Source: Gammaproteobacteria bacterium | GTDB lineage: Bacteria; Pseudomonadota; Gammaproteobacteria; Pseudomonadales; Azotimanducaceae | DNA length: 64,000 nucleotides | Assembly (NCBI GenBank): GCA_026707945.1 | Contig: JAPOVV010000047.1 | Span: 1-64,000, forward strand | Direction: 5' to 3' | In this document: piece by piece, positions 30,742 through 58,491 of the stretch | Position numbering within the stretch: the stretch's first letter is position 1 | Layout: each line of letters opens with the position of its first letter | Notes under the pieces: generated by a model | What the model was told of the DNA's origin: nothing | The model's input: the letters and a program-made list of their open reading frames with translations, nothing else | Databases searched by the model: none | Made by a program: the position numbers and the translations under genes

Positions 30742-30801
30742 CGAGTTTTACTTCCCGATTAGATGCAGTCTGATGGTTTTGGAGTACGGTGTGCCAGAGG
30801 C

Positions 30802-33800
30802 TTAAACAAAACTGGCGAACCGTTCAAAGTAAGCAGTCAGACGGTCTATTACTGTCGCTTTCTTCGACGCGTGCTCGTTGTTTTTGCTGAATTTTGAAAT
30901 TGGTGGAAGTATCTTGGTGATCGCAATACCGGTGATGGGGATCGCACCGTCCCGGAACGCGTTCTCAACGAAGTCCTTGGTTTCTGAGGCTTTGAGACTT
31001 TCCTCCGCGATGAGCACTTCGAGTTCGACTCGCCTCTTTGCGTCGATGTATGCGAGCCATTCATCATTAAGGTGTGAGGACGTTGAAACGGAATCTACAA
31101 ATTGCTCGATTAGGTCTTTTTTATTGCGCAGACTAGGGCTGGAGTCGATCGCTCGCTGGATGCTGCTCCGGATTTCTGTCGCTTGTTCTGCGCCTTTGGC
31201 TTCAAGGTACTGCTCTACAAGCATGAGAATATAGTCAACGTTAATCTCGACCTGCTTTATGAGCTCGATTTCGAAGACAACGTCATCATTGACGCGCTCT
31301 TTGTCCCCGTCCTTTTCACCGCGGAATTCGGCATACAGATAAAGGTATACGCTCTGATAGTCTTGGAAATCTCGTTCACTCAGAATCTCGTTGTCCACAA
31401 ATTCATCGAATGCGGTGAGGATATTTTTCAATCGCAATATGGCACCAAATATTGCGATAAATGCTCTCTTCTTAGATTCGCCTTCGATGCTCTGGCCTAA
31501 TGGGAAATTTATCTGAAGCTCCTCAATCTTCTGTTCGTACTCGTCGTAATACTCAGCGTATGGTTTTAGGAGAACGACGCCTTTCGCATCCTTGTTCCCA
31601 AACAAGGCAAGTGCGTCGTTCGTTTCCTGTTCAAGATCGCGGAACGACACGATATTGCCGTACGTCTTAACTGAATTGAGGATGCGATTCGTGCGTGAAT
31701 ACGCTTGTAATAAGCCGTGAGATCGCAAATTCTTGTCGAGCCAAAGCGTGTTGAGCGTCGTGGCATCAAACCCAGTCAACAGCATGTTCACCACGATCGC
31801 GACGTCCAGATCGCGTTTCTTCAGTCTCTCGGAGAGATCTTTGTAGTAGTTCTGGAACTTGTCAGATGTCGTGTCGAAGTTGGTAGTGAAAAGCTCGTTG
31901 TAGTCGTTGATTGACGCGTCTAAAAAATCCTGCGAGCTTTGGTCCAATCCTTCTGTTTCAAAGTCTTCTTCACCCAATGTACCATCGGGTTCAGGTTCAT
32001 TCGCGGAGAAACTGTAGATGAGTCCAATCTTCAATTGCTTGTCAGATGGAAGGCCTTGTTGTTGCTTACCGAATTCCGTGTAGTAACGTTTCGCCGCTTC
32101 GATTGATGCTGTGGCAAATAAAGAATTGAAGCCTCTAACTCGGTTCCCATCGATGTTGTAGTTAGCAACCCGTTTGGTCTTTTGGTCGAAGTGCTCTCGG
32201 ATATATGCGACTACCTGCGTGACTCGTTCTGGGTCAAGCAACACTCGTTCAGTATCGATGGCACTTACTTTTTTATCCTCGATGTCAGGTGACGTCTTAA
32301 CGGTATTGATATAGTCGATACGGAAAGGCAATACGTTCTTGTCGTTGATCGCGTCGACGATGGTGTAGTTGTGCAGCATCTCGCCAAACACCTGTTCGGT
32401 CGTTTGATTGATCGAACCGCTGTGACTGCCAGCGTTGTCAGCGAATATCGGCGTACCTGTGAAGCCGAACAAGTGATAGCGATTGAAGACACGTGTAATG
32501 GTCGTGTGCATTTCTCCGAACTGACTGCGATGACACTCATCGAATATCAGGACAATATGCTGTGAGTAGGCTGCATGGGTCTTGCGCTTAGTAACAAATC
32601 GGCTGAGCTTCTGAATGGTCGTGATGATGATGCGTGCATTAGGATCTTCAAGCTGTCTTTGCAGAACTACCGTAGACGTATTGGAGTTCGCGGCCCCTTT
32701 TTCAAATCGTTCGTACTCGCGCATCGTCTGATAGTCGAGATCCTTGCGGTCGACGACAAATAGCACCTTGTCGATGTCCGGTAAATCCCGAGCAAGTTGT
32801 GCGGTCTTGAAACTAGTCAGTGTCTTTCCGCTTCCTGTCGTATGCCAGATATAGCCACCCGCTGCTTTCCTGCCGAGTTGCCCGTGATTCGTACTCGTTG
32901 CGATGCGCTGAAGGATTTGCTCTGTCGCCGCGATCTGGTACGGTCGCATAACGAGCAGTTTTCGGTCTACATCGAAGACGCAGTATCGGTTCAAGATGTT
33001 CAGCAAAGTGTGTTTTGCGAAGAAAGTCGCGGTGAAGCTGGTTAGGTCAGCAATGGGTTTGTTCGTTGCGGTTGTCCACCAGTTTGTGAACGCGAAGCTG
33101 TTCGACGACTTGCTCTTCGATCGTTTGGAGCTCTTTTCGTCCAAATGGCCTCTGCGAACGGTATTGCTGTAGTACTTGGTCAGCGTACCATTGCTGATCA
33201 CGAAGAGCTGCACGTATTCGAATAGACCACATCCTGACCAGAAACTGTCGCGTTGGTAGCGATTGATCTGGTTGAAAGCCTCTCGAATGTCAACGCCTCG
33301 TCGCTTCAGCTCCACATGGACCATCGGGAGACCATTGACCAGAACCGTTACGTCGTACCTATTGACTTTGCTCCCTTTCGCTTCGTACTGGTTAATGACC
33401 TGAAGACTGTTGTTGTGGATGTGCTGTTTATCGATTAGGTAGACGTTTTTGAAAGAGCCGTCGTCTCGGGAGAGCACTTGGACGTAATCTTCTTGTACTC
33501 GAAGTGTTTTTTCGACTATGCCGTCATTAGCGCCGGCTATCTGCGTCTCAAAGAACTGTTGCCATTCCGCATCAGAGAACTTGATCTGATTGAGTTTCTC
33601 CAATTGGTTGCGTAGATTCGCTACTAACTGTTCCTCCGTGTGAATTGGGAGGTATGCGTAAGCCTGAGTCTGTAATCGATTGACAAAAGCCGCTTCGAGT
33701 TGCGCTTCAGATTGATACCCTGTTTCTTGTTTTGTATTCGGGAAGTATTCCGCGACGACGGTACTTTCGTCAGAGACCGCTATCGGTTCGTAACGTTGCG

Positions 33801-33819
33801 ACCTCGACTCTTCACTCAT
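30802..33819 (-). CDS. hsdR: type I restriction endonuclease subunit R
   Basis: HsdR translocates DNA and cleaves it when the complex meets unmethylated target sites. The 1005-residue product starts with the PD-(D/E)XK nuclease domain (RYDVTVLVNGLPMVHVELKRRG: D, then ELK), followed by the superfamily 2 motor: Walker A TTGSGKTLTSFKTAQLA, VVDRKDLDYQ, motif II IFDECHRSQFGE, motif III FGFTGTP, motif VI LLQAYSRTNRILNSVKTYGNIV, and a helical C terminus. Length and N terminus (GYQSEAQLEAAFVNRLQTQAY) resemble the EcoR124 (type IC) group. The start overlaps the hsdS stop (ATGA). Order M-S-R in one operon. Confidence 0.96.
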   Translation of the reverse strand: MSEESRSQRYEPIAVSDESTVVAEYFPNTKQETGYQSEAQLEAAFVNRLQTQAYAYLPIHTEEQLVANLRNQLEKLNQIKFSDAEWQQFFETQIAGANDGIVEKTLRVQEDYVQVLSRDDGSFKNVYLIDKQHIHNNSLQVINQYEAKGSKVNRYDVTVLVNGLPMVHVELKRRGVDIREAFNQINRYQRDSFWSGCGLFEYVQLFVISNGTLTKYYSNTVRRGHLDEKSSKRSKSKSSNSFAFTNWWTTATNKPIADLTSFTATFFAKHTLLNILNRYCVFDVDRKLLVMRPYQIAATEQILQRIATSTNHGQLGRKAAGGYIWHTTGSGKTLTSFKTAQLARDLPDIDKVLFVVDRKDLDYQTMREYERFEKGAANSNTSTVVLQRQLEDPNARIIITTIQKLSRFVTKRKTHAAYSQHIVLIFDECHRSQFGEMHTTITRVFNRYHLFGFTGTPIFADNAGSHSGSINQTTEQVFGEMLHNYTIVDAINDKNVLPFRIDYINTVKTSPDIEDKKVSAIDTERVLLDPERVTQVVAYIREHFDQKTKRVANYNIDGNRVRGFNSLFATASIEAAKRYYTEFGKQQQGLPSDKQLKIGLIYSFSANEPEPDGTLGEEDFETEGLDQSSQDFLDASINDYNELFTTNFDTTSDKFQNYYKDLSERLKKRDLDVAIVVNMLLTGFDATTLNTLWLDKNLRSHGLLQAYSRTNRILNSVKTYGNIVSFRDLEQETNDALALFGNKDAKGVVLLKPYAEYYDEYEQKIEELQINFPLGQSIEGESKKRAFIAIFGAILRLKNILTAFDEFVDNEILSERDFQDYQSVYLYLYAEFRGEKDGDKERVNDDVVFEIELIKQVEINVDYILMLVEQYLEAKGAEQATEIRSSIQRAIDSSPSLRNKKDLIEQFVDSVSTSSHLNDEWLAYIDAKRRVELEVLIAEESLKASETKDFVENAFRDGAIPITGIAITKILPPISKFSKNNEHASKKATVIDRLTAYFERFASFV

Positions 33820-34961
33820 AGAGATTCGTTGAAGGTTAAAAGTCTGTCACGGTAGTACTCGTATTGATTGTGACGTGCAGTAATTTCAGCTGGTAGTCCT
33901 AAACATAAGTCGTTAACGAGTGCATCAAATTGATCTAGTATCCCTGCGATCCGTTTCTGTTCGTTGATTGGAGGCAAAGGAACGCGCAGTGAATCAGTAT
34001 CTCCTACACCTAGTTGCGGTAATTTCACGGACGTCGCGCTTGCAATCGATTGGAGACGATTCTCTTGCGCGACTAAGTAGTGGTAGACAAACTTTTGGTC
34101 CGCCACTTTGCTTGTAATTGTGTAAGACCACAGTTCAGCTTTGTGAGTAAATGGACGATCGTAATATGTAAATCCGATAATGCCTCGAGATTTGACGACT
34201 ATGCTAGGTACTCGCACCACATCTTCCTCAGGTACCGACTCTTCGAGGACATCGGCTGTAGTTTGACCACCCGCGAAAACACGAATTGACCCGTCTTTGT
34301 GGTTTAGTTCTCGCATTCGAGCCGCTGTGATCTTCGTCCCTTTGTTGCGCGATCCAAGCTCAATCAACTTCATCCACGGTACAACTTGCTTGCTTGTGGC
34401 GAGCTCATCGAATGTTAGGAGAGCGTCGCGATAGTGTTGATACTGCTTCTTTCGCGCCTCCAGCTCCGCCTCCAGCTCCGCCTCCAGCTCCGTGAAAGTG
34501 TCAAGCGTTTTGACGATTTCAGTTTGCAGTTCAAGTGGAGGTATAGGGATTCGAAAATCTGTAATCATGGGTTTACGGATCGAAGTCACCGTAGCACTGA
34601 CCGCCTTTGAAAGAATGAAATTCCTAAAGCTGCTCGCGAAATAGTAAAACGCGAATTTGGTTATTAACTCACTTTGGAAGCAAATTCGATATGCACGTTG
34701 GTGCAGACCGTATTTACCCTTTACGTAGTGAAAAATCTCTCCAATCCCGCCTTCTCCGGGAATCACGATCGCCTCTTCGTCAAACTCATATGAATCGATG
34801 AGGAGAATTTCCCTAGATCGGACGTAGAACGGATAATCGCCGTCGATCTTTGCGTCTCTTCGATCTCTACTACCAGTACTTACGCTCGCTATGTCTCCCA
34901 CACGACGATACTCCACGCCGCTCGGACATAAGTCTCTGAGCAATTCATCAATCTGACTCAC
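33816..34961 (-). CDS. hsdS: type I restriction specificity subunit S
   Basis: HsdS has two target-recognition domains that read the two halves of a bipartite DNA site. The 381-residue product has TRD1 (about 15-145), a conserved helical spacer ([47 protein letters not shown]), TRD2 (about 195-335) and a C-terminal copy of the helical region ([23 protein letters not shown] ... YYRDRLLTF). The spacer holds three ELEA repeats coded by three identical 12-bp units, at the place where EcoR124-type HsdS carries its TAEL repeats. Start is GTG 34961 overlapping hsdM (GTGA). Confidence 0.94.
34456..34491 (-). repeat. three perfect 12-bp tandem repeats inside hsdS
   Basis: The unit GCCTCCAGCTCC (plus strand) occurs three times without mismatch. 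On the coding strand it encodes a four-residue Leu-Glu-Ala-Glu unit in the spacer helix. Gain or loss of a unit keeps the frame and changes the distance between the two recognition domains. Confidence 0.9.
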
Positions 34962-36535
34962 GTATTTCCTCTCTCTAAGTCGGCGACGATAGTGTCGATC
35001 CGATCTCTCAATTCGTTTTGCCTCACGACTATTCTTCGGATCTCAGCATTCAGTTCCTTGATGTTGACTATTTCACGCTTGTCTCTCTTCTCTACGTACG
35101 AAGATACGGAAATGTTGTAACTGTTTTCCACAAGTTCCCCGTTCTCTACTAGTCGAGCGAAGTGCTCGATATCCTTCCGAGAAGCAAACGCATCAAGGAT
35201 GCTCTTTTGGTGTTCAGCTAAGAGTTTGTTCTTGTTCCCAATGCGACTGAATTCGTTGGAAGCATCAATGAACAACGTGTTGTTGTCGGACTTAGACTTC
35301 TTCAGAACGATGATGCATGTCGCTATCGTAGTTCCAAAGAAGAGATCTGGCGGTAACTGGATGACCGTATCTATATAGTTGTTTTCGATCAGGTATTGAC
35401 GAATTTTCTGCTCTGCGCCGCCGCGATAGAGAACTCCCGGAAATTCGACGATTGCTGCTGTGCCGTTTACTGCCAAAGACGAGAGCATGTGCATGGTAAA
35501 TGCAAGATCCGCCTTACTTTTCGGTGCTAGTACACCTGCCGGAGCAAAACGAGTATCGTTGATCAATAGTGGGTTGTCCTTTCCTTCCCATTTGATGGAA
35601 TATGGTGGATTGGAGACGATCGCTTCAAAAGGTTCATCATCAAGGTGGGCTGGGTTGATTAGGGTGTTCCCGTGTGCGATGTCAAATTTCTCATAATTCA
35701 CGTCGTGGAGGAACATATTGATGCGGCAAAGGTTGTACGTGGTGAGGTTGATTTCCTGACCAAAGAAGCCTTGGTGCACGTTGTTATGCCCCAGCACTTT
35801 GACGAATTTGAGTAACAACGAGCCTGAACCGCACGCTGGATCGTAGACTTTGTTGACGGACTTTTTGCCAACTACTGTGATGCGTGCCAGCAGTTCAGAC
35901 ACCTCCTGAGGTGTGAAAAATTCACCGCCGGACTTGCCAGCTGTGGACGCATACATTGTCATGAGATACTCATAGGCATCCCCAAATAGGTCGATGTTGT
36001 TTTTCGAAAAGTCACCATCCTCACTAAGTGGGAGATCGCCGATGGCATCAAGCAATCTACAGAGCTTCTCGTTCCGCTGAGGTACGGTAGCACCAAGTTT
36101 GGTGCTGTTGACGTCGAGTTCATCGAATAACCCTTTTAGATCGTCTTCGCTCTCCGTGCCAAGTGCTGAACGCTCGATATTGTTGAATGTAGTACTTAGC
36201 GTTTCATTAAGGTTAGGGTCGTCCCTTGCACGTTTACGAACATTGGCAAAAAGCTCAGATGGTAGGATGTAAAACCCCTTTTCCTGTATTGTTTCAGCGC
36301 GACCTCGATCCGCGTCGGAGTCGCTGAGACGAGCGTAGTCAAAATCCGAGTCACCAGCGTCTCTCTCATGCATAGTGAGGTAATTTGAAAGGTTCTCTGA
36401 GATAAATCGGTAGAACAACATGCCTAGGACGTAGCTCTTGAAGTCCCAACCATCCACGGCACCACGTAAGTCATTGGCGATACGCCAGATAGTCTTATGC
36501 AGCTCTGCTCTTTCTGTTTCCTTTACGTTATCCAT
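34958..36535 (-). CDS. hsdM: type I DNA methyltransferase subunit M
   Basis: HsdM methylates adenine at the N6 position in the target of the type I complex. The 525-residue product has the N-terminal HsdM_N helical domain ([35 protein letters not shown]), AdoMet motif [16 protein letters not shown] (about residues 225-240), motif [10 protein letters not shown] and downstream [12 protein letters not shown], then a coiled-coil C terminus (about 480-525) that packs with HsdS. Start is ATG 36535 after a GAGAGA. First gene of the hsdM-hsdS-hsdR operon. Confidence 0.96.
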
Positions 36536-36836: not shown

Positions 36837-37166
36837 TTAGATGCAATCTGATGGTTTAGGCAAGCCACTGATCATCGCGACGTGTCGAGTGGTTTGACTG
36901 CCAAACAATCGCGCCAATGCAATCGAGTTACCGAGCGTCGCTGCAACCTCGTTTCGTACGACGCGAACTAAGGGTCGCATGGAAAGGCTGCGACCTGTAC
37001 GTTCGTAGAACCGTCGAACACCGTGAATGACCCTCCAATGCTCATCGGTTAAGGTGATTTCCAAATTAGTGGCGATTTTCGTGGCTAGATCTGCGGTCCA
37101 AAGCTGATTGTCGCAGAGAAATCCGTCGTCCGTGAATGTTGGGGGCGATTGTTCAGGCATACGCAA
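36837..37166 (-). CDS. tusE: sulfur carrier TusE/DsrC family
   Basis: TusE takes the persulfide from TusBCD and passes it to MnmA for 2-thiouridine formation. The 109-residue product has the DsrC/TusE fold features: FTDDGFLCDNQLWTADLATKIA, LTDEHWRVIHGVRRFYERTGRSLSMRPLVRVV, and the C terminus ISGLPKPSDCI with the penultimate cysteine at 108, which is the persulfide carrier. The second C-terminal cysteine of true DsrC (ten residues earlier) is absent (Val here), so this is TusE-like rather than sulfite-reductase DsrC. It follows tusD after 24 bases, with no tusC or tusB between them. Confidence 0.9.
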   Translation of the reverse strand: MRMPEQSPPTFTDDGFLCDNQLWTADLATKIATNLEITLTDEHWRVIHGVRRFYERTGRSLSMRPLVRVVRNEVAATLGNSIALARLFGSQTTRHVAMISGLPKPSDCI

Positions 37167-37190: not shown

Positions 37191-37562
37191 CTAAGCAGTA
37201 AAGGACACTAGGCGATCACTCTCAAGCATCGCCTCAATTAGTTGACCTAATCCACTTACGGCGAAGCCATCTGCAATTGTGTCGTGATCGACGTCTTGAC
37301 TTATTCCTCGGCGCTGCGCCGCACTTACGCAGAGTACGAGCTCGAAATTCTGATGCTTGCCGAGAGCGACCCATCTACTCTGAAGATTCGGTTCGTCTGG
37401 TGATGTATCGAGGTAGCGTGCGCCAATGGTTACAGCGTCTTGATAGAAGAACACCCGAAAGATGTCATGCTCTGAATCGACAACTGAATTCGCGAAGTCC
37501 AGCGCTGTATGACATGCACGCGTTGACGTTGGTGAACCTTGAACGAGGATGCTTATCTGCAT
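37191..37562 (-). CDS. tusD: sulfurtransferase TusD
   Basis: TusD is the catalytic member of the TusBCD hexamer that relays persulfide sulfur from TusA to TusE. The 123-residue product begins MQISILVQGSPTSTRACHTALDFA, continues HDIFRVFFYQDAVTIGARYL and has the active cysteine at position 78 in VLCVSAAQRRGI, the same number as in E. coli, and ends FAVSGLGQLIEAMLESDRLVSF. tusC and tusB, normally next, are missing. Its first 94 bases recur as a broken copy at 43931-44024, so the DNA upstream of this gene has been exchanged or inserted. Confidence 0.93.
   Translation of the reverse strand: MQISILVQGSPTSTRACHTALDFANSVVDSEHDIFRVFFYQDAVTIGARYLDTSPDEPNLQSRWVALGKHQNFELVLCVSAAQRRGISQDVDHDTIADGFAVSGLGQLIEAMLESDRLVSFTA
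37469..37562 (-). repeat. tusD 5' end, intact copy of a 94-bp direct repeat
   Basis: These first 31 codons of tusD match 43931-44024 in the same orientation at 79 of 94 positions by my count. The two copies enclose the DUF262/DUF1524 gene, the MNT remnant and the SIR2-Argonaute gene (spacing 6462 bases). The similarity fades within about 20 bases upstream of the start codon. Confidence 0.85.
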
Positions 37563-37899
37563 GAGTGGTATTGTGTCAGTTTTTAAGCGGACCGTCGTAC
37601 GTTAGTCTGGAATATTAAGGCAAATCATGGAACATAGATTGGTGTGCTATTTTTAGTTTACGTCGACTTACGAATGGTGTTCGAACGAATCGTGATTAAG
37701 GCAACGAACAAGAGATGTGGACAATTACTAACGCTATTCATGCTCAATTTGTAGCGCTAGACTGATTCGATAACACTCCTTGCTCCGAGTGTAGCAAAAA
37801 ATAGCAGTTGGAATAAGTATTGGTTCTTGTTACCACGGTATTGTCACCAGGCTCCCACGGATCCGTGTTATTTTGTTAAAAAATTGTTAGAGAGGTTTG
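37563..37899. promoter_or_regulatory. divergent regulatory region of tusD and the DUF262 gene
   Basis: About 340 bases, A+T-rich, without a gene. It contains a perfect 12-bp palindrome CACGGATCCGTG at 37856-37867, 33 bases before the DUF262 gene start, which could be an operator, and an AGAGAGG ribosome-binding site at 37889-37895. Confidence 0.4.
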
Positions 37900-39807
37900 A
37901 TGCAAACAGACGATCATCCAGTCGAAGTAATTCTTGCGGAAGGACGCCGATTCATGGTGCCGCTATACCAAAGGAAATATCAATGGCATGACACACAGCT
38001 CATTCCTTTTTGGGAAGATGTTGAAGCGAAAGCGATCGAAGTTCTCGAAGGAACAAGCAAGTTTCAGCACTATATGGGTGCATTAATTCTCGCTCCGATT
38101 GGAGAGACAGCGCAGATTGGCGTAACGCCACGGGTTCAAATTGTGGATGGTCAGCAACGACTAACAACATTTCAAATACTCCTCTCCGCAATTCGTGAAG
38201 TCGCGTTGAAACATGGATGTGAAGATGTCGCGACACATGTAACAGATTACCTATTCAACAAACTAAAGGCGAAAGACACACCCCCTTCGAAGTACAAGCT
38301 GACGCCAACACCTTCCGATCAGAAGGTCTTCTTCGACATACTGGACGAACGATACGACACGATTAGAGTAGAGTACGACGACCTTTACTGGCATGGACAT
38401 GTACCAAAGAACACTCAGGTGAGAGCACTCCGTGCGTATGAGGAACTACACCGCAGGATCGACCTATTTGTTCAATTCGGAGCCGCAGATTCAAGTAATG
38501 GTGAGAACCACAGTGAACTATCTCACGTAATCCACGACGAGAATGACACCGAAGAGGCAATCGAGACGCGACTTACCGCGTTGCTAACAGCGTTATTAAA
38601 CAGGATCAAGTTGGTCGTGATTATCTTAGGTGAAGACGACGATGCTCAGGTCATTTTTGAGACATTAAACTCGAAAGGTGAACCTTTACTCGCCATGGAT
38701 CTTGTGAGAAACAACATTTTCTATAGAGCTGAAAAAGAGGAAGCAGATGTCGATGAACTATACAAGAAGCTCTGGGATCCGTTTGACGATCCATGGTGGC
38801 GTGAATCCGCTCCGTTTGCGCGTCCTAGCCGTCCTCGGATCGACCACTTTCTTACGCATATGCTCGCTGCGGAAACCGGCCAGAAGATTTCGATGCGTGA
38901 ACTATACGCCGAATACCGAGACTTTGCTGTACCAAAAGGCAGCCAACGTTTTCTGAGAGTGGAGGATGAACTCCGTCTTCTTGTCAAATATGCTCCTATC
39001 TATGAAACTCTCGAAGGGCGTATCGAAGGGATTGGAGATCTGCGCTGGCTTGGTCGCAAACTTGCAGCCTGGCAAGTGACCACGGCCTATCCCGTTGCAA
39101 TGCAAATATGCTTGAGCGATATACCCAATTGTGAAAAGCGCAAGCTCTACACCCTAGTTTATTCGTATATCGTGCGTCGTGCGCTTGCGGGTTTGACGGC
39201 GAAAAACTTAAACAATCTGTTTCAAGGGATTTCGCAAGCGTTTCTGCGTGATGGTCCCTCACTCCGCGTTTTCAAGGATTTCTTTTCCGATCGAAAGGGA
39301 GACAGTACGCGTTTTCCTAATGACAACGAATTTCGACAAGGAATCTTCTCTAAACCTGCGTATACCTTAGCTCCAGGACCTCGAATTAAGGATGTCCTAT
39401 GGGAATTGGAGTTAGCGAGTCGGTCTCATTACGCCGAGACTTTTGAGATGCCATCTGAACTTTGGACGGAGCACATGCTCCCCGTGTCATGGACTGAAGA
39501 ATGGCCCTTTGAGGACGGCGAGTTCGTCGAGTTGTGGTCGGATGATCCGAAAGCGGAATACCGTAACAACATACTTCATACACTAGGAAATCTCACTTTA
39601 TTGAAATACAGTCTCAATATAGCGGCCGGTAACAACGGCTTTATTGCAAAGCGTGAGATGCTTGAAGAGCATACAGGGTTATTTCTGAATAGATGGTTCC
39701 GAGCGAGAGATTCTTGGAATGAGACCGAGATCAGAAAGCGGAGCGAATCTTTATCTGAGCTTGCCATAGAAATCTGGCCGACGCTCAATTTTCCTGAATT
39801 GGAGTAA
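37900..39807 (+). CDS. DUF262/DUF1524 protein, GmrSD-like modification-dependent restriction enzyme
   Basis: A 635-residue single-chain protein with both halves of GmrSD: an N-terminal DUF262 (ParB-like) domain with PLYQRKYQW near 17-28 and the nucleotide-site motif VDGQQRLTTFQILLSA (about 80-95), FETLNSKGEPLLAMDLVRN (about 250), and a C-terminal DUF1524 HNH-type domain with WTEHMLPVSW (about 520-530) and LGNLTLLKYSLNIAAGNNGFIAKREML. Members such as GmrSD cut glucosylated or otherwise modified phage DNA using NTP. The ATG at 37900 is preferred to the TTG at 37897 because of the ribosome-binding site. It is divergent from tusD and convergent to the Argonaute gene. Confidence 0.88.
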   Translation: MQTDDHPVEVILAEGRRFMVPLYQRKYQWHDTQLIPFWEDVEAKAIEVLEGTSKFQHYMGALILAPIGETAQIGVTPRVQIVDGQQRLTTFQILLSAIREVALKHGCEDVATHVTDYLFNKLKAKDTPPSKYKLTPTPSDQKVFFDILDERYDTIRVEYDDLYWHGHVPKNTQVRALRAYEELHRRIDLFVQFGAADSSNGENHSELSHVIHDENDTEEAIETRLTALLTALLNRIKLVVIILGEDDDAQVIFETLNSKGEPLLAMDLVRNNIFYRAEKEEADVDELYKKLWDPFDDPWWRESAPFARPSRPRIDHFLTHMLAAETGQKISMRELYAEYRDFAVPKGSQRFLRVEDELRLLVKYAPIYETLEGRIEGIGDLRWLGRKLAAWQVTTAYPVAMQICLSDIPNCEKRKLYTLVYSYIVRRALAGLTAKNLNNLFQGISQAFLRDGPSLRVFKDFFSDRKGDSTRFPNDNEFRQGIFSKPAYTLAPGPRIKDVLWELELASRSHYAETFEMPSELWTEHMLPVSWTEEWPFEDGEFVELWSDDPKAEYRNNILHTLGNLTLLKYSLNIAAGNNGFIAKREMLEEHTGLFLNRWFRARDSWNETEIRKRSESLSELAIEIWPTLNFPELE

Positions 39808-39872
39808 ATCATCGAAGAGACGGTCAGCGCTAGTTACTCAGTAATGTAACGCTAAATTTAGAGTGTGAGCAT

Positions 39873-40100
39873 ATAGTTAATCTTGAAGAGGCTCTGAGCG
39901 AAATTCTCTTAACAGGTGCGATCCAAAACATGCCACACGGTATGTGGATAGGCTGTCGTTGAGGCTACGGCGGAAATTGGACGGTCTGTCGAACCGATGG
40001 ACACGAATTACTAGATGCGCGGCTGTTGTTTCGTGACATACCTCATAGCTACACGGCGTTTCAACACTAGGCGATCGTTCGAAGCCTACTTCTTGACTAG
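39873..40100 (+). pseudogene. possible remnant of the partner of an MNT nucleotidyltransferase
   Basis: A short broken stretch with a suggestive peptide (NLEEALSEIL near 39880, RDIPHSYTAF at 40032-40061, then an in-frame stop) in the frame that leads into the MNT remnant. It resembles the HI0074-type substrate-binding or HEPN partners (R-x2-x-SHTY) that precede such genes. Too little is left for certainty. Confidence 0.25.
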
Positions 40101-40332
40101 ATTCCCGATCGTGAAGTAATCGCGTTCGAATCCCATGCGACGTGGTCTACCAACAACCAAATCAGCCTTAGATCTTGCCGTTCTTGGCAAGGATCCATTG
40201 TCAATCGATGCAATTGCTCGGTTATAGGAAAGTCTGGCAGAATCTGATTTGGTATTTAGATTTGATCTCGTTGATTGGCCGAGATTAATCGATGAGTTTC
40301 AAACCTTCGTCCAGCGTGACGGTGTACCACTT
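40101..40332 (+). pseudogene. decayed MNT-type nucleotidyltransferase gene
   Basis: Reading the plus strand gives IPDREVIAFESHA, a one-base shift at 40140, then RGLPTTKSALDLAVLGKDPL, an in-frame TAG at 40225-40227, and after it ESLAESDLVFRFDLVDWP and the tail EFQTFVQRDGVPL. This follows the small nucleotidyltransferase pattern (FGSRARG, SDIDLAV, DLVDW, then the C-terminal helix with RDGV). The catalytic Gly-Ser is Glu-Ser and the first Asp is lost, so the gene is dead by frameshift, stop and active-site change. MNT proteins are antitoxins of HEPN toxins (type VII). It lies between the DUF262 and Argonaute genes. Confidence 0.65.
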
Positions 40333-40378
40333 GCGTCTCAAATCAGTCGTTCCGACATAGGTGCACAGCAAAATCCAC

Positions 40379-43300
40379 CTAGATGAAGAGCCGATAGTCA
40401 TACGATTCAGCACCAAAACGTTGAAGTAGAGAACCGATACGTGCGATCTCACCAGATGACTGCAATGTTGCGGGCATCTTTGTATAGAGGTCAAAAGTGT
40501 TCCAGTTCATTTTAGATAGACCGAGAATCTCTGAACTCAGCTGCTCAAGCGAACTATCACCAGCGTAGCGCTGAAGAGTGAGGGGCGCTGGTATTCTTCT
40601 CTTGCCTTGAAAGTACTTAAAGCTAGGGTTTATCGCCATCGTGGCGCCATGAACCCAAAGCAGCGCAGAGTAACGATCCAAGTTCATTACTGTTCCGCGA
40701 CGGACCGGATAGTTGTCTTCATCAATTGATCCATCACTTTTGCGTACCGATGCGACATAACGGAGCGCCTGATCTTGTTGTATAGACAACATATCAATTG
40801 CTTCCACGCCGCTTAGGCCGTCGAGCAATCCTTCCCTTTCGTCTTTGAGAAACGGAGTACGTTTGTGCAACACCACGCGCCGTGGCAGTCCCATACGTGC
40901 ATGGTAGAAAAGTTGGCGTATAGTCTCTCCAGTACGACGCGCATCATCTTTTGACATGAAGGGATTACCGCGCCGTATTAGAGGATCTTCCACCTTGCTC
41001 AGGCGGTATTGAAGACCTTCGCCGCGCGCGCTGTAAATATGACTGCAACCGAGTACGACATGAGCTCCTCTTTGGGCATTGCGATCAACGCTGAAACCGA
41101 GACCTACATAGGCTGTGTCTTCGTCTAGCCCATCAAGTACCCACGGAGTGCGCATTCCCTTGACGTAAAGAGCCAGAGACAGCCACCACCATACGCGACA
41201 CTGCTGCTTGTCTGAAAGTGTGTCTTCAGTAAGGAATTGCGTAGCGTTTCCGCGCTGGACGGCATAAGCTTTAACGAAGTCGTGCACGTCAAAACGCTCG
41301 TGGTCATCGCGGTACCCTCGCAATCCTTCCCAACGTCTCGGAAAGAAGATCAAGATCACATGGGGGGCGTATGAAGCTCGAACCGATTCAACGGCAGCCG
41401 TGATCTGCTGCGCGACCGAAATGGTACGAGTTTGGGTGTCTGTACCAAGCGGTTCTGCACACTCATGCCAGCCAGGTGATCCAGGTTCGGGTAGTTCGAT
41501 GGGAAGACCGTAGGCCTGCTGAAATCCCGGATAGTCGACTAAATAATCTCGCTCTTTAGGAGAGGGCTGATGTCCCTGATTTGCTTTCTGAAGGTAGGAG
41601 CGAAGGATAGACGTTTCCGATTGTGGACATATGACTCCGATCCGTAGTGAAGGAGCGAGCCCACTCGTGGTGAGCGGATAGTCGTAAGGGCGATTCGCAA
41701 CGACGCCACGGATTGGGTGTGTATCGCTCGTAACCCCCGTCCCGTTTCTATTGCCGAATACAAGGGAAGGCTCCGTGAGCTCCAAACCACGATGTTTAAG
41801 CAAAGGTCGAAGATTGGACGGAAGAGACGCAGTAGATTGGTCTCGAGGACGCCCAATTTCGGCAAATATGGGCGTGCGACTGATGCGGAATTTGAAGGAG
41901 GAAGCAACTCCGGATGGAAACTCGAATGTCAATGGCGTACCCTTTGGGAAGAGACGACGACGCCATTTGTTCATAGCGATGTTGAAAGGCTTGTTATGTT
42001 GATAACCGAGAATTCGAAGCTTTACGGTAGCGGCGATGTTGCTAGCCACTGGCTTACCCTGTGCGTCGAGAACCTTTATGGAAGGCTTTAGAACTACATA
42101 CTGAGTTCCTGCAAAGCGTCTCAAGAAGACTACCACGGACTCGTGGGCATGGCAGAGATGACCGTTTTGCTTTGTCGTCTCGAGAGGTTGTTTGAACCAG
42201 AGTTCAGAGCGGCCGTTTGATGCAACATCGGCGTTCTCTGCTAGCGTGTGAACAAGGGTATCGCGCATTAGGCTAACAATAGCGCCGTCTTCATAGCGAA
42301 GCTCATCTGGACTGACAGAGGTCCTTTCTATACGTCCTTTAAGGTTGTCGCCGAAGACATCTTTTACACTGTCTACTGTCCCAAGTGCGTAAATCTTGCC
42401 TTTAAACGGGACGGCAACAACTGCACGGTCACCGATTGTTTCGCGCAACCAGGACCAGACTCTCTCTGTCGGCCAAGCTTTGAGATCGAACTCCAAAACT
42501 TCTGACGGACAATCGATCTCAAAAGCGTTGCTCTTGATTACCGTATTCGCCCGAAATTCAGGGATTTCAAATGGTTGACGCTCAAGAAGATCTTTCGAAG
42601 CAGATGCAACAATATCATCACGCGCACGGTCACGATGCTCGCCATCGAGACAGTAGAGAGAAAGCCGCGTCATGAGATCATCGAACCCTAAACTAGGAAT
42701 GTAATAGGCTTTCCCACCGTTTGCCCGTATATTCTGGATGAGTACCGCTATCGGTTCAGGAGCGTCCCCGTCGCCGAAACCGCACCAATACAGAGTGCCA
42801 GTTCCTTCGGCGGCGAATGCCGAACGTAAAACGTTCATGACGGACTGATCTCGTCCACTGTATCCACATACGATAGTCGGACGTTGTCGCAACTCATCTA
42901 TCAGAGCCTTGCTCAATGCCTCTTCCTGACGCTGGAGCTCGTAAGATGTATTCTTAAGTGCGTCGTATCGGTAATCACCGTGAAGGGAGACACAAAGCAA
43001 TTCGCCTTTTCCGGTTTGTCGAACCGCACGTTCTTGCGAATCAATTCCCACTTCAAGAGGAGAGAGTTTGAAGGTCGCCGCAGCGCGAGCCGGTAAGCCA
43101 TCGAAATTAGTCGACCACACCGATCGGATAAGGTCAGCTTGCGCCAAATGACAGAGAAGTCGATAACCTATGTGCGGTTGTGCGTGGAGCACCTTCTCTT
43201 GGAAATATGCCCTTCTATCATCAGGAATCGGGAAACACTTCTGAATGTAAAAACCATATTCATCGGGTTCTCCTTCTTGCGGATAGGTACCTTGCTGATC

Positions 43301-43600
43301 GAGCCACTGCTGAATCCTGCGCTGGCTACTCGGCAATGAAAGTTCATCAAACTGGGCTTCTAACCCGGGATTATTAGTTAGGAATAGATCACGCTTCCAT
43401 TCCCAGATGCATGCTTGTGCTGACGGAATCCCAGAACTTATGGATGCCCCAGCACCAAGAAACAACGAGTGCGGCGTCACACTTCGGACGCCAAATGATC
43501 GGACGAACGCGTCGAGAGTCAGTTCAAAGTCGTCATCCATCTCAGATTTGACAAGGGATATGGAAGAGGAAGTTGAGATAGTGCGTCTGGATTCGGGCAT
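40379..43600 (-). CDS. fused SIR2-APAZ-short Argonaute (SPARSA-type defence NADase)
   Basis: A 1073-residue protein. Residues 46-60 (SLFLGAGASISSGIP) are the NAD-binding SIR2 signature; WSTNFDG with Asn165 and SLHGD with His207 are the catalytic positions. The middle (about 330-600) fits the APAZ domain. From about 690 to the end lie MID and PIWI-like parts (LRIGVICPQSE, VILIFFPRRWEG, WWWLSLALYVKGMRTPWVL, YVGLGFSVD, GLPRRVVLHKRTPF) without a recognisable DEDX tetrad, so the PIWI part should bind but not cut. In this family guide-directed recognition of invading DNA triggers NAD depletion and death of the cell. Most described SPARSA have two genes; a single fused chain is the less common architecture. 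A GGAAG precedes the ATG. Confidence 0.88.
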   Translation of the reverse strand: MPESRRTISTSSSISLVKSEMDDDFELTLDAFVRSFGVRSVTPHSLFLGAGASISSGIPSAQACIWEWKRDLFLTNNPGLEAQFDELSLPSSQRRIQQWLDQQGTYPQEGEPDEYGFYIQKCFPIPDDRRAYFQEKVLHAQPHIGYRLLCHLAQADLIRSVWSTNFDGLPARAAATFKLSPLEVGIDSQERAVRQTGKGELLCVSLHGDYRYDALKNTSYELQRQEEALSKALIDELRQRPTIVCGYSGRDQSVMNVLRSAFAAEGTGTLYWCGFGDGDAPEPIAVLIQNIRANGGKAYYIPSLGFDDLMTRLSLYCLDGEHRDRARDDIVASASKDLLERQPFEIPEFRANTVIKSNAFEIDCPSEVLEFDLKAWPTERVWSWLRETIGDRAVVAVPFKGKIYALGTVDSVKDVFGDNLKGRIERTSVSPDELRYEDGAIVSLMRDTLVHTLAENADVASNGRSELWFKQPLETTKQNGHLCHAHESVVVFLRRFAGTQYVVLKPSIKVLDAQGKPVASNIAATVKLRILGYQHNKPFNIAMNKWRRRLFPKGTPLTFEFPSGVASSFKFRISRTPIFAEIGRPRDQSTASLPSNLRPLLKHRGLELTEPSLVFGNRNGTGVTSDTHPIRGVVANRPYDYPLTTSGLAPSLRIGVICPQSETSILRSYLQKANQGHQPSPKERDYLVDYPGFQQAYGLPIELPEPGSPGWHECAEPLGTDTQTRTISVAQQITAAVESVRASYAPHVILIFFPRRWEGLRGYRDDHERFDVHDFVKAYAVQRGNATQFLTEDTLSDKQQCRVWWWLSLALYVKGMRTPWVLDGLDEDTAYVGLGFSVDRNAQRGAHVVLGCSHIYSARGEGLQYRLSKVEDPLIRRGNPFMSKDDARRTGETIRQLFYHARMGLPRRVVLHKRTPFLKDEREGLLDGLSGVEAIDMLSIQQDQALRYVASVRKSDGSIDEDNYPVRRGTVMNLDRYSALLWVHGATMAINPSFKYFQGKRRIPAPLTLQRYAGDSSLEQLSSEILGLSKMNWNTFDLYTKMPATLQSSGEIARIGSLLQRFGAESYDYRLFI

Positions 43601-43930
43601 TTAATTAGCTTCCAACTATGTTCGTCTATTTATGGGGTTGAGGGTCTCTTTCACGTCATGCTTTGTAGGAGCGCACCGTTCAGGAAACTTCTACACATAC
43701 GTTATTTAGTTGATGTGCTGGAACTACTCTAGTTTGAGTAAAGTAGTTGAAATAGACAAATCTATCTGCATCGCTTGTGACGGTAACCTTTTCCATGTTC
43801 TCGATATTCGATCGGCTTGTTAGTAATTATCATGTTTTAAACGCATATGTACACACTAAACATAGGGTACTGTTTAAAGTGAAAAGTGGAAATTCAAGAG
43901 CGTAATCGAGGAATAAACCTAACAGGTCGT
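43601..43930. other. A+T-rich region upstream of the Argonaute gene, no gene seen
   Basis: About 330 bases between the Argonaute start and the tusD fragment. No convincing frame. It should hold the Argonaute promoter and, if the block was inserted, one junction. Confidence 0.5.
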
Positions 43931-44024
43931 GCTCTGAATCGACAATCGATTTTGCGAAATCAAGCGCGGAATGACATGCACGTGTTGACGTCGGCGAGCC
44001 TTGAACGAGGATGCTGATTTACAT
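43931..44024 (-). pseudogene. tusD 5'-end fragment, broken copy of the direct repeat
   Basis: On the minus strand from 44024: ATG, then TAA at codon 2, then ISILVQGSPTSTRACHSALDFAKSIVDSEHDL, which is the TusD N terminus (codons 3-33). Identity to the intact gene is 79 of 94 bases, with most differences synonymous. Beyond codon 33 no similarity remains. It reads as the 5' end of a tusD that was cut off by insertion or replacement. Confidence 0.85.
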
Positions 44025-44120
44025 AGTCGGAATTTTGATTAATCTCGTTCAAACCGAGTGCTTTTATTTTCTGGGTAGCGGATTGAAGGTAATGAAATCG
44101 ACCACATTGAGACTGTCCAA

Positions 44121-44507
44121 CTACACCATCTGAATTGGACCCGGGTAACTTCCGATAACCCGGTCAGCGGTTAACAACATGATGGATTCACTTGTCGCCT
44201 GTCCAATCAGCATTCGATCGAATGGGTCTCTATGTATCGTCGGAAGTTCCGCGACTGCAATGGCATGATCGGCATGTACGGGGAGTTCGGCATATCCCCT
44301 ATCAATCAATTCCTCAAGAAACCGTGCGGGTTTCACGTAAAAGTCGGAACGTCCGAGTGTGCTTTTAATTGCGACTTCCCAAACACTAACAGAGCTGTAA
44401 AAAAGCCTAACTGTAGAGTAAGGAATGATCTTCTCAGCTGCTTCCGATAGTCGTTCCTGTGCCCCTGTGGCCCAAAGAAGCAATTGCGTATCCAGCAAAA
44501 ACCTCAT
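44121..44507 (-). CDS. PIN-domain toxin (VapC-like)
   Basis: A 128-residue PIN ribonuclease of the kind paired with Phd/VapB antitoxins. MRFLLDTQLLLWATG gives the first acidic residue (Asp6), SSVSVWEVAIKSTLGR the Glu, and HRDPFDRMLIGQA and LLTADRVIGSYP the later acidic cluster. Gln replaces the usual His after the first Asp-Thr. The start overlaps the stop of the upstream partner gene by 4 bases (ATGA), the typical toxin-antitoxin coupling. Confidence 0.88.
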   Translation of the reverse strand: MRFLLDTQLLLWATGAQERLSEAAEKIIPYSTVRLFYSSVSVWEVAIKSTLGRSDFYVKPARFLEELIDRGYAELPVHADHAIAVAELPTIHRDPFDRMLIGQATSESIMLLTADRVIGSYPGPIQMV

Positions 44508-45439
44508 GCTTTGCCTTCAAACAAGCTCGTGATTTCCTCGGCTCCCATTTCATTGAAGTCATCGGGTATCTCGATCTCGCCTAAAAGAGAACCGATTCGA
44601 CTGCGCGCTTTTTCGTTTTGCTTGCCACGTCGGCTTGATCCGTCGCGAAATTCCAAAATGAGATCTTGGTAAGTCGATCGCGCTGGTTCGTCCGCACGCA
44701 AGATAGCAAACCTGAGACGTTCCAAGTTTGCGCCAGAGTAGAGTAGGTCAATCGTGTCCGCAATGAAGTCATCCTGTACCGGATCATTTTGGTCAAGTTG
44801 AACTACCCACCGCCAAAACCTCGCCATGACTTCCTCGCGTGGTCGAACGTAGTCTTCGGGTTGTAATCCCGCGACCGCCCAAGGTTCGCCAATGCGTAAA
44901 TCTGGATGTATGGATCCTTTATACGTCCAGATCTTCAGTCCGACCATGAGAGCCGCGCAAATAAATGCGCCGTTCGCAGTGTACCGATCTGATGCTATTT
45001 CTTCCTTCACTTTGCCCGTTCGGCGGTCGCGCTCACGCAAATACGACTCTACACTATGTCTGAGTCGATAGCTGGATGTCTTCGGCGGGGCTGGACCGTT
45101 GAATCGCTTTGGTTGAGCGCAACCTCGAAGACGATAGCTCAACGATATTCGACCGTCAACAAAGTATTCAAGGGTATTTCGAATGCCTTGTTCAAAACGA
45201 CCGCCGCTTCGAAGCGCGTCACGTGATGTTTCAAAATCGTGTGCTTCCTCAGCTTCCAGTAGCGTGAGTTCCTCTGCTTTGCGGATAGGATCCCCTCTCT
45301 GCGAGCGCAAAGGAAATCCGAGTCCCCTCGAATTGAGTAGCGGGTGTGATTCAAGTGTCTTATTTCGTTGAGATTCAAAAAAATCGGGATCGCTTAATAA
45401 CCGACTTGCCGTGTCCCAAAGCCTACGGTTTTTTAACAT
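44504..45439 (-). CDS. 311-residue partner of the PIN toxin with an antitoxin-like C terminus
   Basis: It occupies the antitoxin place, upstream of and overlapping the PIN gene, but is about four times longer than Phd/VapB proteins. The last 25 residues (LGEIEIPDDFNEMG ... EEITSLFEGKA) look like the toxin-binding tail of Phd-type antitoxins that partner PIN proteins. The rest is not recognised. A part near 155-235 (NGAFICAALMVGLKIW ... FWRWVVQLDQNDPVQDDFIADTID) faintly recalls YozE/SAM-like helical modules. The N-terminal region is basic and charged and might bind DNA or RNA. The 20-bp palindrome just upstream supports autoregulation. An AGGGAG precedes the ATG. Confidence 0.7.
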   Translation of the reverse strand: MLKNRRLWDTASRLLSDPDFFESQRNKTLESHPLLNSRGLGFPLRSQRGDPIRKAEELTLLEAEEAHDFETSRDALRSGGRFEQGIRNTLEYFVDGRISLSYRLRGCAQPKRFNGPAPPKTSSYRLRHSVESYLRERDRRTGKVKEEIASDRYTANGAFICAALMVGLKIWTYKGSIHPDLRIGEPWAVAGLQPEDYVRPREEVMARFWRWVVQLDQNDPVQDDFIADTIDLLYSGANLERLRFAILRADEPARSTYQDLILEFRDGSSRRGKQNEKARSRIGSLLGEIEIPDDFNEMGAEEITSLFEGKA

Positions 45440-45621: not shown

Positions 45622-46773
45622 ATGACAGCCGTCTTGTCTACTACGGAATATCAACAACGATTGGCATCCTATGCGTGCGAAGGGAAAAAGCGCGCCCAAC
45701 AACTAGGAAATCGCGGTCCGATCCGTTTTGACGATCATGGAAAACTCCACTCTGACATAGTCCGAGCATACTGGGAACACGGGTTCTACGTGTTTACCAG
45801 CATTCTAAGTGAAGCAGAGGTCAATGAGCTTAGAAGTGACGTTATGAACGTCTTGGAGCATGCGCCTGATGGTCCGGGTCAGAAAATTGATGCAAATGGA
45901 GAACCTGCGGTCGGTATCGATATGAAACGGTATCCGTATCACTTCGTGAAGCCGCTGTCAGACCCTGTTGGCGGCACTGCGAGTTCGGAAGGTCGACATA
46001 TGAGCAAGATGGCTGAAGCAAGTCCCGGTGATGACGCGCCGGAATATGTAATTCAGATCATCGCGGGAATGTGTCAGCTGTTTGACTCCGGGCTCCGAGT
46101 TTACGGTCATCCACAACTATTGGCGGTTGCGGAAGCCATAAATGGACCGGATTTCGTACCTTACAACGACGCGATTTTTGTTAAACAACCTGGGCTAGGT
46201 GGGTCCGTAGCTTGGCACCAGGATGGCGTAACCCATTGGAATAGCCCCGATTGGGATGAAGGTATCCACGGCGTCAATTTCCAAGCTCAACTGAACGAGA
46301 CTTCACCGGTGAGTTGTCTGTGGGTAGTACCGGGAACGCACAAGCTTGGCCGGGTTGATATCAAGGCGATGGTTGAAGCAAACGGAGGTTCTGATCAACT
46401 ACCTGACGCGATTCCACTATATTGCGAGCCCGGAGATGTGACGATCGTTAACCGCCAAACATTGCATTGCTCATTCGCGAATACGTCAGATGATTTTCGT
46501 ATTTCCGTGTCATGGGGTATGCACAGGCGAGCTGCGGTACTAGGTCAACATGGGCATCTATTGCAACCGAAGGAAGTGATCTACGACGACGATTTCGTGG
46601 ATAAAAGGGCGAGTGTGATTCAAGTCGCCATCGATGCACGACGACAGTACTACCCGGATGAATCTTCGTTCGAATATCTACCATTTAGGCACGTTCAGGA
46701 TGAATACCGCTGGAGTCCCAACACCTTTGAGAGTGTTATTCGCGACTACAACACCCGTGACATCGGCATATAA
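45622..46773 (+). CDS. phytanoyl-CoA dioxygenase (PhyH) family oxygenase
   Basis: A 383-residue non-haem Fe(II)/2-oxoglutarate-dependent oxygenase of the PhyH family. The iron triad is visible as HQDG (His199, Asp201, in SVAWHQDGVTHW) and the distal His in TLHCSFANTSDD (near 281), followed by the 2-oxoglutarate-binding Arg in FRISVSWGMHRR. The substrate is unknown; this family hydroxylates small molecules, including natural products. It is followed after 82 bases by a TauD-type dioxygenase in the same direction, so the two probably form a pathway segment. It is divergent from the toxin-antitoxin genes. Confidence 0.88.
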   Translation: MTAVLSTTEYQQRLASYACEGKKRAQQLGNRGPIRFDDHGKLHSDIVRAYWEHGFYVFTSILSEAEVNELRSDVMNVLEHAPDGPGQKIDANGEPAVGIDMKRYPYHFVKPLSDPVGGTASSEGRHMSKMAEASPGDDAPEYVIQIIAGMCQLFDSGLRVYGHPQLLAVAEAINGPDFVPYNDAIFVKQPGLGGSVAWHQDGVTHWNSPDWDEGIHGVNFQAQLNETSPVSCLWVVPGTHKLGRVDIKAMVEANGGSDQLPDAIPLYCEPGDVTIVNRQTLHCSFANTSDDFRISVSWGMHRRAAVLGQHGHLLQPKEVIYDDDFVDKRASVIQVAIDARRQYYPDESSFEYLPFRHVQDEYRWSPNTFESVIRDYNTRDIGI

Positions 46774-50591: not shown

Positions 50592-50595
50592 TTGA

Positions 50596-58250: not shown

Positions 58251-58395
58251 TCTACTGTCTTAGATCGAGCCGCCGAAACGGAAGGCTTACGCGTTTCCCT
58301 GTGGAACTGATTAGTAGATTCGCGGAGGCGGTTTTGGCTTCGATGTCGTCTGACTAAATGCTGTTCATCCTTTAAAATCAGCCCGACTCGATCAG

Positions 58396-58491
58396 GTGAA
58401 TATTCTGTCCATGGTGCCCGCGTCAGCCATGCCTATCTCGTTTGTGGGATATTCGTTCTATAGCAAAATCAATGACGTAGCAACAGCGTAA
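58396..58491 (+). pseudogene. 3'-end fragment of a second Nramp-like gene
   Basis: The plus strand reads VNILSMVPASAMPISFVGYSFYSKINDV then ATA and TAA, which matches the last residues of the Nramp-like transporter (INILFMVLASAMYISFAGYTIYSK ... VAA). Similarity is confined to the last ~31 codons; upstream DNA is unrelated. It is a paralogue relic, in the same orientation as the intact gene and about 4.3 kb downstream of its end. Confidence 0.8.

What the first reader, a model, noticed from the sequence alone, without database searches (positions are those of the whole stretch)
37469..44024. A defence block (DUF262/DUF1524 plus fused SIR2-Argonaute) enclosed by an intact and a broken copy of the tusD 5' end
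The first 94 bases of tusD recur 6462 bases away in the same direction with 79 identities and a stop at codon 2. Everything between (GmrSD-like gene, dead MNT gene, SPARSA gene) is accessory. This is the footprint of an insertion or recombination at the tusD start in which the incoming DNA supplied a new 5' end, the old one being left as a relic. No integrase is present, so homologous replacement or a mobilised satellite is possible. If the tusD 5' end is a recurrent target, this marks a defence hotspot.
Basis: partly seen in the sequence, partly recalled or inferred. Interest (0 to 1): 0.72.

Follow-up and report, generated by a model that had tools for sequence, protein, structure and literature searches.

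The report
Defence genes imported beside tusD
A block of two antiviral genes appears to have arrived from a sister species still attached to that species' version of the start of a neighbouring housekeeping gene, which is now in use while the original start lies nearby as a dead scrap.

Summary
In detail: the first 94 bases of tusD recur 6462 bases away, same strand, 79/94 identical, stop at codon 2. The four nearest relatives have one tusD start; in three, PhyH follows directly (empty site). The two copies are not one duplicated sequence. They differ mostly at silent positions (12 of 16, codons 1-33), which simulated decay of a dead copy never gave (0 of 5000). Codons 1-26 of the working tusD match sister genomes G017 and G016 at 74/78 and 73/78, the only one of 4675 windows in 14 neighbouring genes to do so; relic and tusD 3' part show ordinary distance. 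So the working 5' end came with the block and the relic is the recipient's own start. Two other relics beside insertions (Nramp-like gene end near OloAB; TauD end in G010) are not decayed copies of their own genome's gene either, and the type I RM block is flanked by a 21-bp repeat of the tusE 3' end. Among five genomes tusD is occupied once; the neighbourhood is the hotspot. No integrase was found in the block. Short-homology recombination with sister-species DNA fits best; a recombinase in trans is not excluded. No donor genome was found.

The parts
36837..37166 (-). tusE/DsrC-like gene; its 3' end is the flank of the type I RM block
   Evidence: PF04358 E 7e-26
37191..37562 (-). intact tusD, chimeric
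   Evidence: PF02635, TIGR03012; mosaic
37485..37562 (-). codons 1-26 of tusD: inferred imported 5' end, G016/G017-like
   Evidence: 4 and 5 differences in 78 nt; only such window of 4675
37468..37483 (.). 16-nt stretch identical in both copies, at the switch point of the mosaic
   Evidence: alignment, site patterns
37563..37896 (.). DNA upstream of the intact tusD; only about the first 17 nt clearly resemble the tusD upstream of relatives
   Evidence: no sigma-70-like consensus site found in 37500-37960
37897..39807 (+). GmrSD-type (DUF262/DUF1524) type IV restriction-like gene, 636 aa
   Evidence: PF03235 and PF07510; PADLOC mREase_IV 5e-89
   Evidence: no MNT match to two of its pieces
40379..43600 (-). 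one-chain SIR2-pAgo (SPARSA-like), 1073 aa
   Evidence: PADLOC PDLC02384 1361 bits over 25-1073; PDB 8in8 chains B and C match parts of its two halves
43908..44024 (-). relic of tusD codons 1-39, stop at codon 2: inferred old 5' end of the recipient
43930..43945 (.). relic copy of the 16-nt identical stretch
44025..44055 (.). native-like tusD upstream DNA next to the relic
   Evidence: alignment to G017/G016/G010
44121..44507 (-). PIN-domain gene, apparently a separate insertion in the tusD-PhyH gap
   Evidence: PF01850 2e-11
44504..45439 (-). 311-aa gene overlapping the PIN gene; weak VapB-like tail (E 0.046, far under the cut-off)
   Evidence: no Pfam match
45622..46773 (+). PhyH backbone gene, next to tusD in G017, G016 and G010
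30802..36535 (-). type I RM (hsdR, hsdS, hsdM), absent at this site from G017, G016, G010 and G006
36837..36857 (.). tusE 3'-end repeat, copy in tusE
   Evidence: 20/21 with 30759-30779 (sequences)
30759..30779 (.). tusE 3'-end repeat, relic copy followed by native-like downstream DNA
58375..58466 (+). relic of the 3' end of the Nramp-like gene 52725-54191, best explained as a decayed G017-like allele
58516..61922 (-). OloB and OloA-like (Olokun) genes beside that relic
   Evidence: PADLOC 3e-175 and 7e-67
48287..51555 (+). NsnABC-like genes in the TauD/291-aa junction
   Evidence: PADLOC

Best explanation
The recipient had one tusD followed at a short gap by PhyH, as in G017, G016 and G010. 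DNA from a sister species of the G016/G017 lineage, in which the GmrSD and SIR2-pAgo genes stood about 17 nt upstream of tusD, entered the cell. It joined the recipient's tusD within codons 27-33, where both resulting copies read the same 16 nt. The working tusD now takes codons 27-123 from the recipient and codons 1-26 plus its upstream from the donor; the recipient's own codons 1-33 or so and its native upstream remain at the far end of the block and are decaying. Shown: two copies, empty sites, unusual closeness of the working 5' end to G016/G017, former function of the relic. Inferred: that this closeness means import, the donor arrangement (not found in any genome), and the joining step, most likely homologous recombination over a short stretch (a single crossover of a circularised fragment, or homology on one side with an illegitimate join on the other). 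The same route would explain the other partial gene ends at insertions in this neighbourhood. The cargo is expected to act as known systems do (restriction of modified DNA; NAD depletion after guided recognition; both recalled, not tested).
For: Relic vs intact, codons 1-33: 12 silent, 4 non-silent, none at second codon positions; simulated neutral decay of the intact copy gives mean 4.3 and at most 11 silent of 16 in 5000 runs. Codons 1-26 of the intact copy: 4 and 5 differences to G017 and G016 against means 15.4 and 15.7; 1 of 4675 overlapping windows in 14 genes is that close to both, and it is not simply conserved: G017 and the intact copy each differ from G010 by 16 there. The relic has 13 and 13 in the same codons. 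Best break for intact-G017 falls after codon 26 (P 0.042 corrected for the scan); with the break fixed at 26, P 0.0009 (G017) and 0.0003 (G016). Sites read with G010 as outgroup: in codons 1-26, 4 join intact with G016/G017 against the relic, 0 join intact with relic; in codons 27-33, 2 join intact with relic, 0 the other way. Native-like upstream DNA of about 30 nt lies by the relic, only about 17 nt by the intact copy. A second relic points to the same side: the Nramp-end relic differs from G017 by 4 silent and 14 non-silent changes, as plain decay gives (null mean 4.5 of 18), but from the window's own gene by 13 silent of 26 (P 0.0014). The TauD-end relic in G010 is also not a decayed own copy (17 silent of 36, null mean 7.6, 0 of 5000).
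Against: No genome with the block beside a G016/G017-like tusD was found; G016 and G017 lack it. The mosaic rests on 78 nt; the break scan for intact-G016 peaks after codon 67, not 26, and 1 of 5 outgroup-informative sites in codons 1-26 points the other way. G017 and G016 are themselves rather alike at the tusD start (0/51 differences in codons 1-17, scan P 0.17; 3/78 vs 28/291, P 0.06 at the fixed break). Transformation is not obvious: the ComEC domain was found in 0 of 12 genomes of the genus examined, against 5 of 5 from other families (own genome also negative with TIGR00361). The window is from a draft genome of 117 contigs with no reads at hand, so a misassembly of co-occurring species cannot be fully excluded, though it would need two joins at nearly the same codons.
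Confidence: 0.7

Rival explanations
1. Site-specific integration into the tusD 5' end by a recombinase supplied in trans: the element carries an attachment core (the 16 nt) followed by a replacement 5' end. This rival accepts the import and disputes only the joining step, so its odds overlap with those of the main reading.
For: Both junctions share one 16-nt core with native-like DNA on the outer sides; the type I RM block has a 21-bp repeat of the tusE 3' end, 20/21 identical; the genome has five PF00589 matches elsewhere, four over the cut-off; SXT Int recombines at the 5' end of prfC (PMC2791158, passages).
Against: No integrase family match in the four ORFs scanned, and none of the five PF00589 matches is on this contig. 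The tusD and tusE repeats show no evident common sequence (by eye). A site-specific element would carry its own 5' end, not necessarily one close to two sister species' native tusD. The TauD-end and Nramp-end relics are about 190 and 92 nt and gene-specific.
Confidence: 0.2
2. Ordinary insertion with target duplication: one sequence copied at insertion, one copy later decaying.
For: Topology: both outer flanks are native-like; such insertions are known for RM genes (PMC1643837, passages).
Against: The copies differ mainly at silent sites; neutral decay gave this in 0 of 5000 runs; likewise rejected for the two other testable relics against their own genome's copy.
Confidence: 0.06
3. The relic, not the intact 5' end, came in with the block, and the intact tusD is wholly native.
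For: The Nramp-end relic beside OloAB does look imported, so relics can be the foreign copy.
Against: The relic has the native-like upstream and an ordinary distance to relatives; the intact 5' end has mostly unfamiliar upstream DNA and unusual closeness to G016/G017.
Confidence: 0.1
4. Assembly chimera of two co-occurring sister species.
For: Draft genome in 117 contigs; the four nearest relatives are metagenome assemblies by title.
Against: Needs two false joins at nearly the same codons; backbone identity to G017 is alike on both sides (79% left, 79-85% right); similar scars occur at other sites and in G010.
Confidence: 0.07

Closest known systems
[quoted passage not shown] 2017, PMC5635113; passages read)
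   Same: Accessory genes without recognisable mobility genes between conserved genes; signs of recombination in the flanking gene
   Different: That model is a double exchange in the flanking genes, which by itself would leave no relic; here one event seems to leave a chimeric gene and the displaced gene end. The paper links it to transformable species; ComEC was not found in 12 genomes of this genus
Insertion with long target duplication, Nobusato et al. 2000 (not held, not read; seen as cited in PMC1643837 and PMC3031569, passages)
   Same: Defence genes (there RM genes) flanked by a long direct repeat with the unoccupied site in a relative
   Different: Described as duplication of the target; here the two copies look like alleles of different species. 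Whether the original cases were tested for this I could not read
Homology-facilitated illegitimate recombination and single crossover of circularised fragments (PMC3240628, abstract and section list)
   Same: Homology on one side, or one crossover, suffices to bring in unrelated DNA
   Different: Laboratory events in E. coli, the first at 3x10^-10 per recipient; here an inferred natural event between species about 20% apart
SXT/R391 elements in the 5' end of prfC (PMC2791158, PMC5122569, passages)
   Same: Insertion at a gene's 5' end
   Different: Those carry their own tyrosine recombinase and conjugation genes; no recombinase was found in this block. That they restore the gene with a new 5' end is recalled, not read
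SPARSA (SIR2 protein with short pAgo; PDB 8in8 and others; the name SPARSA is recalled)
   Same: Parts of both halves match the two chains of the solved complex
   Different: One polypeptide here; a full-length profile of this fused form already exists in PADLOC (PDLC02384)

Membership tests
Insertion with target duplication | direct repeat at both ends, single copy in an unoccupied relative | tested here: met
Insertion with target duplication | both copies stem from one target sequence | tested here: not met
   silent-site excess, 0 of 5000 simulations; mosaic
Hotspot driven by recombination at flanking core genes | variable accessory content between conserved genes | tested here: met
   five junctions compared in the window, G017, G016, G010
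Hotspot driven by recombination at flanking core genes | recombination signal in the flanking core gene | tested here: met
   tusD codons 1-26; one gene, 78 nt
Hotspot driven by recombination at flanking core genes | absence of mobility genes | tested here: met
   no integrase or transposase family among the ORFs scanned; no PF00589 match on the contig; short ORFs not scanned
Integrase-borne genomic island | recombinase gene in the element | tested here: not met
   (tyrosine recombinases genome-wide; serine recombinases only through the ORFs scanned)
Integrase-borne genomic island | attachment-like direct repeat | tested here: inconclusive
   16-nt core at tusD, 21-bp repeat at tusE; no further copy of the tRNA-Ser 3' end in the window
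SPARSA / SIR2-pAgo | SIR2 domain, APAZ-type region and MID-PIWI | tested here: met
   SIR2_2, PADLOC profiles over the whole length, PDB chains; the middle region is covered by the PADLOC profiles only
SPARSA / SIR2-pAgo | NAD degradation on guided recognition | not testable with these tools
   no assay; catalytic residues not checked
GmrSD type IV restriction | DUF262 and DUF1524 domains in one chain | tested here: met

The most novel reading that the evidence does not exclude
In this lineage defence genes travel between sister species as cargo welded to the end of a neighbouring core gene, and the core-gene end is the vehicle: it provides the homology for entry and keeps the core gene working afterwards, so that no mobility gene is needed. 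Each entry leaves a displaced or surplus gene end, so the history of a defence hotspot could be read from such scars.
Probability: 0.3. Interest if true: 0.65.

Novelty: new variant of a known kind. Interest (0 to 1): 0.5.

Why it matters
How chromosomal defence genes move without mobility genes is poorly understood (so stated in passages of PMC12829572 and, for one E. coli hotspot, PMC10121019). A scar in which the working gene is half donor and the recipient's piece survives beside the cargo gives direction, donor lineage and joining point for one event. The test used here (are the two flanking copies alleles of different species, with silent changes in excess?) can be run on other hotspots and separates imported gene ends from true target duplications.

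Tried and rejected
Classical tRNA island: the tRNA-Ser 3' end (20, 25 and 30 nt; up to 4, 6 and 6 mismatches) occurs nowhere else in the window, although the hot region does lie between tusD and the 3' end of that tRNA.

A viral carrier: no relative of the pAgo or the GmrSD protein was found in viral contigs (narrow peptide patterns, so close relatives only).

A donor in the family: the pAgo search matched 11 of 206 genomes, own included; the strongest other matches are half-length pieces at 29-34% identity. The GmrSD search matched 30 of 206, own included; G003, G009 and G008 at 66-69%, G060 at 57%. The G009 and G008 copies sit among other genes, and the fetched stretches of G003, G009 and G008 show no plus-strand self-duplication; the G003 contig is under 4 kb. 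The G060 stretch was fetched but not examined.

Second tusD copies elsewhere: 84 of 97 genomes, own included, have a tusD match; besides the window only G047 has two, the second being a 36% stretch in a 777-aa frame. A 39-codon relic in a distant genome could fall below the cut-off. A search with the relic DNA in 17 genomes (G016 and G017 not among them) found only the two known places and a 22-nt piece in G005; it missed even the intact tusD of G010 and G006, so it is insensitive.

The dead MNT gene: two pieces searched, no MNT match. A promoter for the new tusD start: none found by consensus, which says little.

Literature: tusD with 'defense system' gave one paper, on the translation apparatus of Mollicutes. 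A search for partial duplication, illegitimate recombination, flanking gene and defense system (any three) gave nine papers, none of them on this by title and abstract start. A search on sponge symbionts and Argonaute gave 179 papers of which ten were listed; none was opened. I therefore say only that these searches showed no description of the scar; the held library lacks most subscription journals.

Full report
What was claimed and what is there. All four numbers are right. The region between holds a GmrSD-type gene and a 1073-aa one-chain SIR2-pAgo, parts of whose two halves match the two chains of solved complexes such as 8in8. The supposed dead MNT gene could not be confirmed.

Empty sites. 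The window is the first 64 kb of a 70.8-kb contig of a 3.8-Mb draft genome in 117 contigs. In G017, G016 and G010 (backbone about 79% identical to the window for G017) tusD is followed after 90 to 168 bases, by longest ORF, by PhyH, with one tusD start. In G006 tusD lies about 450 bases from tRNA-Ser with no PhyH between.

The two copies look like alleles of different lineages. Over codons 1-33 the relic differs from the intact copy at 16 positions: 3 first, 0 second, 13 third codon positions; 12 silent and 4 not. Simulated neutral decay gives 4.3 silent on average and 11 at most in 5000 runs; decay from G017 or G016 is rejected in the same way. So the relic was a working tusD for most of the time since the copies parted.

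Which one is foreign. I slid 78-nt codon windows along 14 backbone genes (19 listed, 5 dropped because no match to them was found in the fetched G017 stretch; windows with more than 3 gaps also dropped): 4675 overlapping windows, mean differences 15.4 to G017 and 15.7 to G016. Codons 1-26 of the intact tusD, with 4 and 5, is the only window that close to both, and it is not simply conserved since it differs from G010 by 16. The relic has 13 and 13 there, an ordinary value. A break scan puts the switch against G017 after codon 26 (P 0.042 corrected for the scan; 0.0009 with the break fixed). Against G016 the fixed-break P is 0.0003, but the scan peaks after codon 67, which weakens the exact place. 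G017 and G016 are also somewhat closer to each other there (3/78 against 28/291, P 0.06). From codon 27 the intact copy shares with the relic two states that G016/G017 lack, and both copies are identical over 16 nt, 37468-37483 and 43930-43945. Beside the relic lies about 30 nt of native-like upstream DNA, then unrelated DNA with the PIN and 311-aa genes; the intact copy keeps only about 17 nt that clearly resemble it.

The scar recurs nearby. Between the ABC gene and tRNA-Ser, five gene junctions are filled differently. ABC/tusE: type I RM in the window only. tusD/PhyH: the window only. TauD/291-aa: NsnABC in the window, a type IIG-like gene plus TIR-APAZ-like and pAgo genes in G016, 1.7 kb in G010 whose 169-aa ORF has no PADLOC match, 158 bases in G017. 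Nramp/CobW: a thioredoxin-domain gene in the window, two ORFs without PADLOC match in G016 (one with cytochrome c domains), 389 and 281 bases in G017 and G010. DUF1826/tRNA-Ser: OloAB in the window, 1.9 kb in G010 (one of its three ORFs scanned, no PADLOC match), 115 and 93 bases in G017 and G016. Known defence genes thus fill 4 of 5 junctions in the window and 1 of 5 in G016; none were found in G010, where only two small ORFs were scanned, or in G017, where no ORF of 90 aa or more was listed in the gaps. Four of these insertions carry a second, partial copy of a core-gene end: tusD 5' (window); tusE 3' end, 20 of 21 bases, relic copy next to native-like downstream DNA (window, RM); Nramp-like 3' end, 92 nt, beside OloAB and not at its own junction (window); TauD 3' end, about 190 nt (G010). 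Five others (NsnABC and the thioredoxin gene in the window, two in G016, one in G010) and the PIN/311-aa stretch showed none at E<=0.01. Of the three relics long enough to test, all reject decay of the genome's own copy, and the Nramp-end relic fits plain decay of a G017-like allele (4 silent of 18, null mean 4.5). There the relic is the foreign copy; in tusD the working end is. Both point to the G016/G017 side as donor. The TauD-end relic of G010 is not especially close to any of the four TauD genes.

Mechanism. No recombinase was found among the ORFs scanned, the genome's five PF00589 matches lie on other contigs, and there is no tRNA-type repeat. A short-homology exchange with a fragment carrying the tusD 5' end plus block explains the mosaic, the shared 16 nt and the displaced native end together. 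Circularised fragments integrating by one crossover, and one-sided homology at low frequency, are both reported in E. coli (PMC3240628, abstract). How DNA entered is open: the ComEC domain was found in 0 of 12 genomes of the genus examined (18 have handles; the other six were not searched) and in 5 of 5 outside it, so transduction, conjugation or another route seems likelier than classical transformation; incomplete assemblies could hide the gene in some. Lateral transduction of defence islands followed by homologous recombination is shown in Staphylococcus aureus and E. coli (PMC12829572, passages).

Comparison. Oliveira et al. proposed exchange at flanking core genes for hotspots without mobility genes (PMC5635113, passages). 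Nobusato et al. described RM insertions with long target duplications (not read; as cited in PMC1643837 and PMC3031569). The case here has the topology of the second and, on my reading, the cause of the first. It fails the defining feature of a target duplication, since the copies do not look like one sequence at the time of insertion.

Limits. One genome carries the tusD event; the imported stretch is 78 nt; windows overlap and are not independent; no donor was found; a draft metagenome-type assembly without reads underlies everything.

Noticed in passing
window 30802-61922: About 31 kb holds type I RM, GmrSD, SIR2-pAgo, a PIN/311-aa pair, NsnABC and OloAB, spread over four core-gene junctions rather than in one island.
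   Followed up: partly
L035 2124-8245 (G016): In sister genome G016 the TauD junction holds a type IIG-like enzyme and a two-gene TIR-APAZ-like plus pAgo system, so two relatives carry different short-pAgo systems within the same neighbourhood.
   Followed up: partly
genus g1 genomes G000-G011: The ComEC domain (PF03772) was found in none of the 12 genomes of the genus examined but in all 5 examined from other families of the order.
   Followed up: partly
window 44121-45439: A PIN-domain gene overlaps a 311-aa gene without Pfam match whose tail very weakly resembles VapB (E 0.046); possibly an unusually long antitoxin.
   Followed up: no
window 58375-58466: A foreign-looking Nramp-gene end lies after the DUF1826 gene instead of beside the Nramp gene, next to OloAB.
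   Followed up: partly
L033 10898-12361 (G017): The Nramp-like gene of G017 is split into two reading frames in this assembly.
   Followed up: no
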